DNA from: an uncultured Candidatus Saccharibacteria bacterium
GTDB taxonomy: Bacteria > Patescibacteriota > Saccharimonadia > Saccharimonadales > Saccharimonadaceae
NCBI GenBank assembly: GCA_946532885.1
Contig: CAMNBP010000002.1
Location: 1-41,511, forward strand
Reading direction: 5' to 3'
DNA length: 41,511 bases
In this document: positions 26,022 to 28,253 of the stretch, piece after piece
How the letters are laid out: the number at the start of each line of letters is the position of its first letter
Numbering within the stretch: the stretch's first letter is position 1
The notes under the pieces: model-generated
The model's input: the letters and a program-made list of their open reading frames with translations, nothing else
What the model was told of the DNA's origin: nothing
Database searches by the model: none
Translations under genes and position numbers: made by a program

Positions 26022-26050
26022 AAAAATACCCCCGAATGGGGGTATTTTTT
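26022..26050. terminator. Bidirectional hairpin terminator
   Basis: AAAAATACCCCCGAATGGGGGTATTTTTT. Confidence 0.85.
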
Positions 26051-27365
26051 AAAGCTCTGCAATTTTGACGCGCACCTGTTCGGTCGTATCACGATCGCGC
26101 ACCGTCACGGTGTCATCTTCGAGCGTATCGAAGTCGATTACGATACATTTTGGTGTACCAATTTCGTCTTGTTTGCGGTAGCGTTTACCGATATTACCAG
26201 AATCATCCCAAGTTACATTGCCATACTTCTCACGTAGATTCTTATAGACCTCTTGGGCTTTTGCGACTAGCTCCGGCTTATTCTTCAAAAGCGGCGACAC
26301 ACAAAAACGATATGGCGCCAAATCTTCCGACAACTTCAAAAGCGTACGCTTTTCGCCATTAACTTCATCTTCGCAATAAGCCGTACACAAAACTGCCATC
26401 ACAAGACGCTCTACGCCCATTGAAGGCTCAATTACATGCGGAATAAAGCGCTTGCCGCCACCCTTCACGATATATTCCATATTCTTACCGCTCTCACGCT
26501 GAATATTGCTAAGGTCGAAATCCGTACGATAAGCAATCCCCATCAGCTCTTCGCAGCCAATTGGATAATCAAACTCTATATCAATCGTGCGCTTCGAATA
26601 ATGCGCGCGGTCCTCTGCTGGCACATCTAGCTCGTGAATATTTTCTTTGTTTAAGCCCATCTTATTCTCGAGAAAATCGTGGCAACCTGCCAAAAGTTTA
26701 TCGAAGTGCTCTTCCCACGTTTCTGGATCGACAAAATATTCAATCTCCATCTGATTAAACTCGCGTGAGCGGAAAATAAAATCACGCGGCGAAATTTCAT
26801 TACGAAAAGCCTTACCCTGCTGCGCAATACCAAATGGCAAATCAGGATAAATCGTATCGACAACGTTCTTGTAATTCGTAAAGATACCTTGCGCAGTCTC
26901 TGGGCGGAGATAGGCAATATTGTCAGGGTCGGTGCCGACATTAGTCTTAAACATACCATTAAACTGCTTAATGTCAGACCAGTTCGTCTTACCACAATTC
27001 GGGCACTTCAAGTTAAGAGCCTTGAACTCATCTGTCGTGACGTGTTCAGAAATCTCGTCCGACATTTTATCGGCACGAAAACGGTTGTGACACTCCTTAC
27101 ATTCCACCAGCGGATCATTAAATGTTTCCGTATGCCCAGACGCTTTCCAAACTTGCGGATTCATAATAATCGCCGCATCCACACCATACATATCTTCACG
27201 GTTTTCAACCCAGTATTGCCACCAGGCATCCATAATTTTCTTCTTCAAGGTCACGCCAAGCGGCCCAAAATCCCATGTTCCAGCCATGCCGCCATACACG
27301 TCTGATCCTTGCCAGATAAAACCACGGCGCTTGCAAAGGCTAACGATATCTTCCATTTTTGCCAT
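26049..27365 (-). CDS. glyQS: Glycyl-tRNA synthetase (class II, dimeric type)
   Basis: SLCKRRGFIWQGSDVYGGMAGTWDFGPLG, LRPETAQGIFTNYKNV, GIAQQGKAFRNEISPR, EPSMGVERL. Confidence 0.97.
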   Translation of the reverse strand: MAKMEDIVSLCKRRGFIWQGSDVYGGMAGTWDFGPLGVTLKKKIMDAWWQYWVENREDMYGVDAAIIMNPQVWKASGHTETFNDPLVECKECHNRFRADKMSDEISEHVTTDEFKALNLKCPNCGKTNWSDIKQFNGMFKTNVGTDPDNIAYLRPETAQGIFTNYKNVVDTIYPDLPFGIAQQGKAFRNEISPRDFIFRSREFNQMEIEYFVDPETWEEHFDKLLAGCHDFLENKMGLNKENIHELDVPAEDRAHYSKRTIDIEFDYPIGCEELMGIAYRTDFDLSNIQRESGKNMEYIVKGGGKRFIPHVIEPSMGVERLVMAVLCTAYCEDEVNGEKRTLLKLSEDLAPYRFCVSPLLKNKPELVAKAQEVYKNLREKYGNVTWDDSGNIGKRYRKQDEIGTPKCIVIDFDTLEDDTVTVRDRDTTEQVRVKIAEL

Positions 27366-27427
27366 ATTTTTCTCCTTTCAAAATGCTATCAATCCCCCTA
27401 AGTTCTGCTCTAAGAGTCACAAGAATA

Positions 27428-27481
27428 CTAGGCCCGAAGGCCACCTTTAAAACCACCGATGAAGTATTTGTACTCGTTCAT
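27428..27481 (-). CDS. Putative glycine-rich leader peptide MNEYKYFIGGFKGGLRA upstream of glyQS
   Basis: ATG AAC GAG TAC AAA TAC TTC ATC GGT GGT TTT AAA GGT GGC CTT CGG GCC TAG; ATG 6 nt from TGATATAAT. Confidence 0.6.
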   Translation of the reverse strand: MNEYKYFIGGFKGGLRA

Positions 27482-27487
27482 GTTTTA

Positions 27488-27496
27488 ATTATATCA
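27488..27496 (-). promoter_or_regulatory. Extended -10 promoter of the glyQS leader
   Basis: TGATATAAT on the minus strand. Confidence 0.7.
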
Positions 27497-27560: not shown

Positions 27561-28253
27561 ATGGTTTTTCTTGATCAGCTTCACGATCGCATCATTCATG
27601 ATCCGGAATGGCAAGAGTGGGCTAAAATGGTAGGCCAATATAACGCCGATACAGAGATTAAATTCGGCTGTGATCACAGTAAACCGCATTGGCTCCGCGT
27701 TGCTGCGGTCGCCAAGGATTTCGTCCGTCGCGCCGGAGGCAATCATTACGAAATGCTTCTCGCCGACATCGCCGGACTCATCCATGACTGCGGACTTATT
27801 TGCGGCGACGCTAATCATGCCACCAATGGCGCCCGTATTGCCGAAGCTTATCTCAAATCACGCTGGGGAAATGGTCGTCCACTCAAAGATAGTGACATCG
27901 CCATCATTATCCATGCCATTGCACATCATAGCAGTTGTGACGATATTCAAAATCTAGTCGACGCTGCTTTAATTTTCGCCGACAAAACTGACCTCGACCA
28001 TCGTCGCGCCCTGCAAACCGTCAACCATACTCAGCAAGAAATTACTAAGATAAAACAAATCCAGTTCAAAATCACTAAGACGACTCTTGCCTTAAACTAC
28101 GAAGTTGCAGACGACTTTAATCTCGACAATTTTCATTGGAAGAAGGCTTTTGATGCACCTGCTGCCGTCGCCGTATTTCTTAGCAAAGAGTTCCGTTTTT
28201 ATATCAACGGACGCCCAGTTCGCCTGTCTACCTCACAAACCCCCACCGTTTAA
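27561..28253 (+). CDS. HD-domain metal-dependent phosphohydrolase-like protein
   Basis: HSKPHWLRV...AGLIHDCGL...HAIAHHS...DAALIFADKTD; AAAAGGAG RBS. Confidence 0.8.
   Translation: MVFLDQLHDRIIHDPEWQEWAKMVGQYNADTEIKFGCDHSKPHWLRVAAVAKDFVRRAGGNHYEMLLADIAGLIHDCGLICGDANHATNGARIAEAYLKSRWGNGRPLKDSDIAIIIHAIAHHSSCDDIQNLVDAALIFADKTDLDHRRALQTVNHTQQEITKIKQIQFKITKTTLALNYEVADDFNLDNFHWKKAFDAPAAVAVFLSKEFRFYINGRPVRLSTSQTPTV

What the first reader, a model, noticed from the sequence alone, without database searches (positions are those of the whole stretch)
27366..27496. Candidate glycine-sensing leader peptide upstream of glycyl-tRNA synthetase
On the minus strand, 6 nt after an extended -10 box (TGATATAAT), there is a 17-codon ORF MNEYKYFIGGFKGGLRA* with two Gly-Gly pairs (GGT GGT, GGT GGC). 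It stops 62 nt before glyQS. The last Gly pair runs directly into GGCC-TTCG-GGCC, a UUCG hairpin that ends right at the stop codon. The CC bases of that hairpin plus TAG (27432..27428) could alternatively pair with CTTAGG (27402..27397). A CTCTT in the spacer could also pair with the AAAGGAG RBS. There is no T-box consensus (AGGGTGGNACC). The arrangement resembles ribosome-mediated attenuation of amino-acid operons, but here on a glycyl-tRNA synthetase gene in a CPR-like genome and apparently starting from a leaderless mRNA. The coding content and promoter spacing are direct observations; regulation is inference.
Basis: partly seen in the sequence, partly recalled or inferred. Interest (0 to 1): 0.82.

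Follow-up and report, generated by a model that had tools for sequence, protein, structure and literature searches.

The report
Conserved leader ORF before glycyl-tRNA synthetase
In one genus of tiny parasitic bacteria (Saccharibacteria), the gene for the enzyme that loads glycine onto tRNA is preceded by a short translated reading frame that runs into an almost unchanging 37-base RNA signal, probably a control switch, although the proposed glycine sensing is not shown.

Summary
A 17-codon ORF (window 27481..27428, minus strand) starts 6 nt after an extended -10 box and stops 62 nt before a single-subunit, dimeric-type GlyRS gene (not glyQS). The same layout recurs in 16 distinct leaders from 16 genomes of the genus. 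All have an ATG 6-7 nt after TATAAT, an open frame of 16-26 codons differing by whole codons, and the same last codons G-(L/P)-R-A-stop. A nearly invariant 37-nt core, GGCCUUCGGGCCUAR-NN-UUCUUGUGACUC-NN-AGAGYA, spans the last codons, the stop and the next 22 nt. It is absent from Rfam and found only before GlyRS. Substitution patterns support translation of the ORF.

Gly-Gly pairs are not conserved (one leader keeps a single Gly codon). The proposed alternative pairing and Shine-Dalgarno sequestration are not conserved, and there is no terminator. Gly codons are moderately enriched overall. I favour ribosome-dependent leader control in which the ribosome's position at the fixed stop or core sets glyS translation; glycine supply is a plausible but untested signal.

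In passing: other genera of the family carry a covarying tRNA-Gly anticodon-arm mimic at the GlyRS Shine-Dalgarno, like E. coli thrS.

The parts
27488..27496 (-). Extended -10 promoter box TGATATAAT
   Evidence: Read directly. TGN-TATAAT followed 6-7 nt later by the leader ATG in all 16 distinct leaders.
27428..27481 (-). Leader ORF MNEYKYFIGGFKGGLRA*, apparently read from a leaderless mRNA
   Evidence: Open in 16/16 homologous leaders, 16-26 codons; codon-position variability 24/10/30; pN/pS mostly < 1.
27431..27442 (-). Hairpin GGCC-UUCG-GGCC (codons Gly-Leu-Arg-Ala)
   Evidence: Stem invariant in 16/16; one loop change, CTT>CCT, in L039. Never varies, so no covariation evidence.
27406..27442 (-). 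Invariant 37-nt core: hairpin, stop codon, TTCTTGTGACTC-NN-AGAGCA
   Evidence: 30 of 37 columns invariant across 16 leaders. Exact TTCTTGTGACTCNNAGAG only upstream of GlyRS in genus g1. CM R1 gives 78-81 bits for members and at most 20 bits elsewhere.
27406..27419 (-). Possible bulged hairpin UG-A-CUC-UUA-GAG-CA after the stop
   Evidence: All pairs standard in 15/15 rows, one G-C to G-U change (L045), no compensatory change: plausible, not shown.
27394..27398 (-). G-run GGGGG (4-5 G in all homologs)
   Evidence: Conserved run. The only core segment with a widely kept complement is CCUUC of the hairpin (14/16, two G-U allowed).
27372..27378 (-). Shine-Dalgarno AAAGGAG of glyS
   Evidence: Read directly. 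Relatives without the leader mostly have leaderless glyS instead.
26049..27365 (-). glyS, single-subunit dimeric-type glycyl-tRNA synthetase, 438 aa
   Evidence: NCBIfam NF003211 and TIGR00389, Pfam HGTP_anticodon and tRNA-synt_2b.

Best explanation
This is a cis-acting leader of glyS found in one genus. An apparently leaderless transcript is translated from its 5' end through a 16-26-codon ORF that always stops at the same place inside an invariant 37-nt RNA core. The fixed register of stop codon and core suggests that a ribosome finishing, or held up on, the last codons (including the one invariant Gly codon GGC) controls how the core behaves, and so how well glyS is translated from its own SD 57-66 nt downstream. 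The most likely input is the supply of Gly-tRNA(Gly), giving feedback on GlyRS. Shown computationally: conservation, coding signature, register and gene specificity. Inferred: leaderless start, ribosome dependence, control at the translation level, glycine as signal.
For: 16/16 distinct leaders keep TATAAT-N6/7-ATG, an open frame and the same C-terminal G-L/P-R-A-stop register, while lengths vary by whole codons. Coding signature: second codon positions least variable (24/10/30 variable columns, p = 0.007) and pN/pS mostly < 1. The core is invariant although GlyRS proteins have diverged to about 75% identity, and third codon positions in the GLRA codons never change, so RNA is constrained as well as peptide. 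Upstream neighbours differ between genomes, so the leader belongs to glyS. The element is found only at glyS. Gly codons are enriched in lineage representatives, 15/103 (p = 0.004).
Against: No consistent SD sequestration under any modelled ribosome position. No terminator. No excess folding (z +1.3). No covariation, because the core does not vary. Gly codons fall to one in L095. The leader has been lost several times within the genus (4-5 changes on the GlyRS tree), so it is dispensable. No expression data exist.
Confidence: 0.5

Rival explanations
1. The core is a binding site for a trans factor (GlyRS itself, uncharged tRNA-Gly, or a small ligand). Autoregulation is RNA- or protein-mediated and the ORF is secondary.
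For: The invariant 20 nt after the stop are more than a spacer needs. Related genera independently use a tRNA-Gly anticodon-arm mimic at the GlyRS SD, so GlyRS feedback probably exists nearby in the family.
Against: The core holds no anticodon-like loop with U-NCC and no T-box or Rfam match. The ORF is conserved in frame with the core in 16/16.
Confidence: 0.2
2. Nascent-peptide arrest: the peptide end ...G-L-R-A stalls the ribosome at the stop codon, in the manner of SecM/RAPP or TnaC, and the stall controls glyS.
For: The R-A-stop end is invariant in 16/16. Known arrest motifs include R-A-G-P and R-A-P-P, and some uORF arrest peptides stall with the stop codon in the A-site (PMC10987492).
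Against: The same nucleotides form the GC hairpin, so the residues may be fixed by RNA. L039 has G-P-R-A. N-terminal residues, which tune known arrests, are poorly conserved. The leader lacks the Pro of RAPP-type motifs.
Confidence: 0.12
3. The leader raises glyS translation constitutively: a strong leaderless start loads ribosomes that reinitiate at glyS.
For: Leader-gene reinitiation has been proposed as common in bacteria (PMC4833913). Leaderless-type starts are common in this genome (84 of 315 ORFs).
Against: Proposed reinitiation distances peak near 10-11 bp; here the gap is 57-66 nt. An enhancer would not need an invariant core.
Confidence: 0.1
4. Classical transcription attenuation on tandem Gly codons with terminator and antiterminator hairpins.
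For: A Gly-rich leader peptide and a GC hairpin followed by a U-rich stretch.
Against: The stem is only 4 bp and no terminator is found by the consensus scan. There are no conserved alternative hairpins. Tandem Gly is absent in several homologs.
Confidence: 0.05
5. Chance ORF next to an unrelated conserved element.
For: Short ORFs are common.
Against: Fixed register, coding signature and whole-codon length changes.
Confidence: 0.03

Closest known systems
Ribosome-mediated attenuation of aminoacyl-tRNA synthetase genes (E. coli pheST, from memory; predicted for Streptomyces trpS and leuS, PMC1262725)
   Same: Short leader ORF with codons for the cognate amino acid ahead of a synthetase gene.
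   Different: No terminator/antiterminator pair, cognate codons not consistently tandem, apparently leaderless ORF, invariant RNA core beyond the stop.
Actinobacterial LEU element upstream of leuA (PMC1262725)
   Same: Leader ORF rich in the cognate codon combined with a conserved RNA element that is not a classical attenuator.
   Different: LEU is a pseudoknot with predicted pairing to the SD; none was found here; different gene and phylum.
T-box riboswitch of Firmicutes glyQS
   Same: Leader control of glycyl-tRNA synthetase.
   Different: No T-box sequence or Rfam match; the gene here is single-subunit GlyRS, not glyQS.
E. coli thrS operator (tRNA anticodon-arm mimicry; PMC6542539 summarises it)
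   Same: Synthetase mRNA leader likely serving feedback.
   Different: The window leader has no anticodon-like hairpin; the sister genera in passing do.
SecM / RAPP-type and stop-codon arrest peptides (PMC10987492)
   Same: uORF ending in R-A, fixed stop position, regulated downstream gene.
   Different: No Pro, short ORF, residues possibly fixed by the RNA hairpin, arrest untested.

Membership tests
Leader-peptide transcription attenuator | Translated short leader ORF | tested here: met
   (comparative evidence only).
Leader-peptide transcription attenuator | Tandem cognate (Gly) codons conserved | tested here: not met
   Gly count 1-5; L095 has only the core GGC; overall enrichment p = 0.004.
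Leader-peptide transcription attenuator | Intrinsic terminator and competing antiterminator | tested here: not met
   Consensus scan finds none; no conserved alternative helices.
Leader-peptide transcription attenuator | Response to amino-acid supply | not testable with these tools
   Needs a reporter.
T-box riboswitch | T-box sequence and Rfam T-box match | tested here: not met
   No match at gathering score or E <= 5.
tRNA-mimic operator (thrS type) | 7-nt loop mimicking the cognate anticodon loop next to the SD | tested here: not met
   Not in the window's genus (R2 search); met in genera g30, g33, g38.
Translation arrest peptide | C-terminal motif that stalls the ribosome | not testable with these tools
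   G-L/P-R-A-stop conserved but confounded with the RNA hairpin; needs toeprinting.
Leaderless mRNA | Transcript starts at or 1-2 nt before the ATG | tested here: inconclusive
   TATAAT-N6/7-ATG in 16/16; no transcription start data.

The most novel reading that the evidence does not exclude
A new class of ribosome-coupled RNA regulator in Patescibacteria: a mini-ORF read from a leaderless mRNA delivers a ribosome to a fixed stop inside an invariant RNA core that senses glycyl-tRNA supply and sets GlyRS translation, with neither terminator nor SD sequestration of the known kinds.
Probability: 0.25. Interest if true: 0.8.

Novelty: new variant of a known kind. Interest (0 to 1): 0.58.

Why it matters
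I found no paper describing post-transcriptional control of GlyRS in Saccharibacteria in the library searched. A leader ORF on a leaderless transcript, locked to an invariant RNA core absent from Rfam, would be a new way of controlling a tRNA synthetase. Together with the tRNA-Gly anticodon mimic in sister genera, it suggests that this family gained GlyRS control more than once from an unregulated leaderless gene. That makes control of translation in obligate epibionts directly testable.

Tried and rejected
Rfam at gathering score and at E <= 5: no match.

Exact core in viral contigs: one hit, L113, with no leader around it, taken as chance.

CM R1 over 200 order genomes: nothing above 20.1 bits outside the genus. 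Pattern hits with 1-2 mismatches outside the GlyRS leaders are at control level.

Long-range pairing of ORF codons 3-7 with the region before the SD: clear in L037 and L038, weak in L039, not in the others. Pairing of ORF GAATAC with post-stop GTATTC: only in some lineages.

SD sequestration under four ribosome positions: inconsistent.

Pairing or mimicry of the core with the genome's 27 tRNAs: nothing specific to tRNA-Gly; the shared TAGAGC(A) resembles many D-arms.

The two 1-mismatch hits of the 12-mer in the own genome are not in Rfam RNAs.

A pattern search for the anticodon mimic used wrong spacing and was uninformative; it was replaced by model R2.

Full report
Observation. The minus strand of the window carries TGATATAAT, 6 nt, then ATG AAC GAG TAC AAA TAC TTC ATC GGT GGT TTT AAA GGT GGC CTT CGG GCC TAG (27481..27428), a 62-nt spacer and the GlyRS start at 27365. 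The gene is single-subunit GlyRS, not glyQS. The description of the sequence is otherwise accurate. In 324 kb of the same genome no second short ORF of this kind stands ahead of an SD-type gene with a good -10 box. About a quarter of the 315 ORFs examined (84) have leaderless-type starts, so the promoter spacing itself is ordinary in this organism.

Homologs. GlyRS genes were collected from genus, family and order. Within the genus, 16 of 45 genomes have the exact motif TTCTTGTGACTCNNAGAG, at 17 sites. All the exact sites read lie just upstream of GlyRS (L090's gene runs off its contig, but its N-terminus is that of GlyRS). None of the 397 order genomes searched has an exact match outside the genus. 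Of about 75 GlyRS upstream regions read from other genera of the family, none has the element and most have glyS itself directly after TATAAT, i.e. leaderless. On the GlyRS tree the leader occurs in both halves of the genus and needs 4-5 changes, which fits presence in the genus ancestor with repeated loss. One close relative (L005/L035, 93% GlyRS identity) has lost it.

Anatomy. The 16 distinct leaders share TGN-TATAAT, ATG 6-7 nt later, an open frame of 16, 17, 19 or 26 codons, and an end reading G-L-R-A-stop (G-P-R-A in L039). The variable part shows a coding signature: variable columns at codon positions 1/2/3 are 24/10/30 of 69 each, p = 0.007, and pN/pS is mostly 0.2-0.7. From the GGCC hairpin to AGAGYA, 30 of 37 columns are invariant, including 16 of 18 positions of TTCTTGTGACTC-NN-AGAG past the stop; a run of 4-5 G follows. 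Third codon positions in the GLRA codons never vary. This points to constraint on the RNA as well as on the frame. The stop codon always lies at the same place in the core.

Mechanism tests. Classical attenuation needs a terminator and alternative hairpins. SD accessibility, computed free and with the ribosome at the stop, at the Gly codon or at initiation, does not shift in a common direction. A screen for conserved complements found only CCUUC of the hairpin against the G-run (14 of 16, allowing two G-U), which reflects the G-run itself. The hairpin and a second bulged hairpin after the stop are compatible with all sequences but lack covariation because the core is invariant.

Glycine. Outside the fixed GLRA block, Gly makes up 15 of 103 codons in lineage representatives against 6.75% in the genome (p = 0.004, not fully independent). 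All Gly codons are GGT or GGC except two GGA; in the genome 84% are GGT or GGC. But L095 has only the core GGC, and the Gly-Gly pair is absent in the C-L-V/I type leaders. Glycine sensing is therefore possible but not a conserved, obvious feature.

Interpretation. The evidence best fits a ribosome-dependent leader in which a ribosome arriving at the fixed stop acts on the core. The conceptual precedents are leader ORFs combined with a non-attenuator RNA element, such as the actinobacterial LEU element (PMC1262725), and uORFs that stall at their stop codons (PMC10987492). What the core does, and whether glycine supply is the signal, cannot be settled from sequence.

In passing. In genera g30, g33 and g38 of the same family, GlyRS has a different leader: a 5-bp hairpin with loop UUGCCAA directly before AGAAAGG. 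The loop is identical to the anticodon loop of tRNA-Gly(GCC) of the window's genome, and in L246 it becomes UUUCCAA, the loop for anticodon UCC. Four of five stem pairs show compensatory changes. A model search of 298 order genomes gives 8 hits above 28 bits: five lie at GlyRS upstream regions already read, and the other three were checked and precede a GlyRS-like gene. This looks like thrS-type operator mimicry and deserves its own study.

Noticed in passing
L147, L151, L165, L168, L172, L241, L243, L244, L246, L283, L287, L288 (upstream of GlyRS, genera g30/g33/g38 of the same family): GlyRS leader with a covarying 5-bp hairpin and 7-nt loop UUGCCAA (UUUCCAA in L246) abutting the SD: an apparent tRNA-Gly anticodon-arm mimic suggesting thrS-like autoregulation. 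Model hits above 28 bits in 298 genomes all precede GlyRS.
   Followed up: partly
Own genome G000 and GlyRS upstream regions across the family: Leaderless-type starts (TATAAT-N4-8-ATG) are common, about a quarter of ORFs in the window genome, and are the default for glyS in this family.
   Followed up: partly
L037 and L041 (G010, MAG CAMZJD01): Two GlyRS genes (92% and 91% identity to the window's) on two contigs of one MAG, each with its own version of the leader; duplication or a mixed bin (6% contamination).
   Followed up: no
L037, L038, L039 leaders: Leader codons 3-7 (TGCTTAGTTA) can pair with TAATTAAGCAT just before the SD (p < 0.01 in L037, 0.01 in L038, 0.06 in L039). Lineage-specific, possible additional layer of control.
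   Followed up: partly
window 27561..28253 (+): Divergent HD-domain protein gene shares the intergenic region; it is not kept next to the leader in all relatives (Pfam HD).
   Followed up: no
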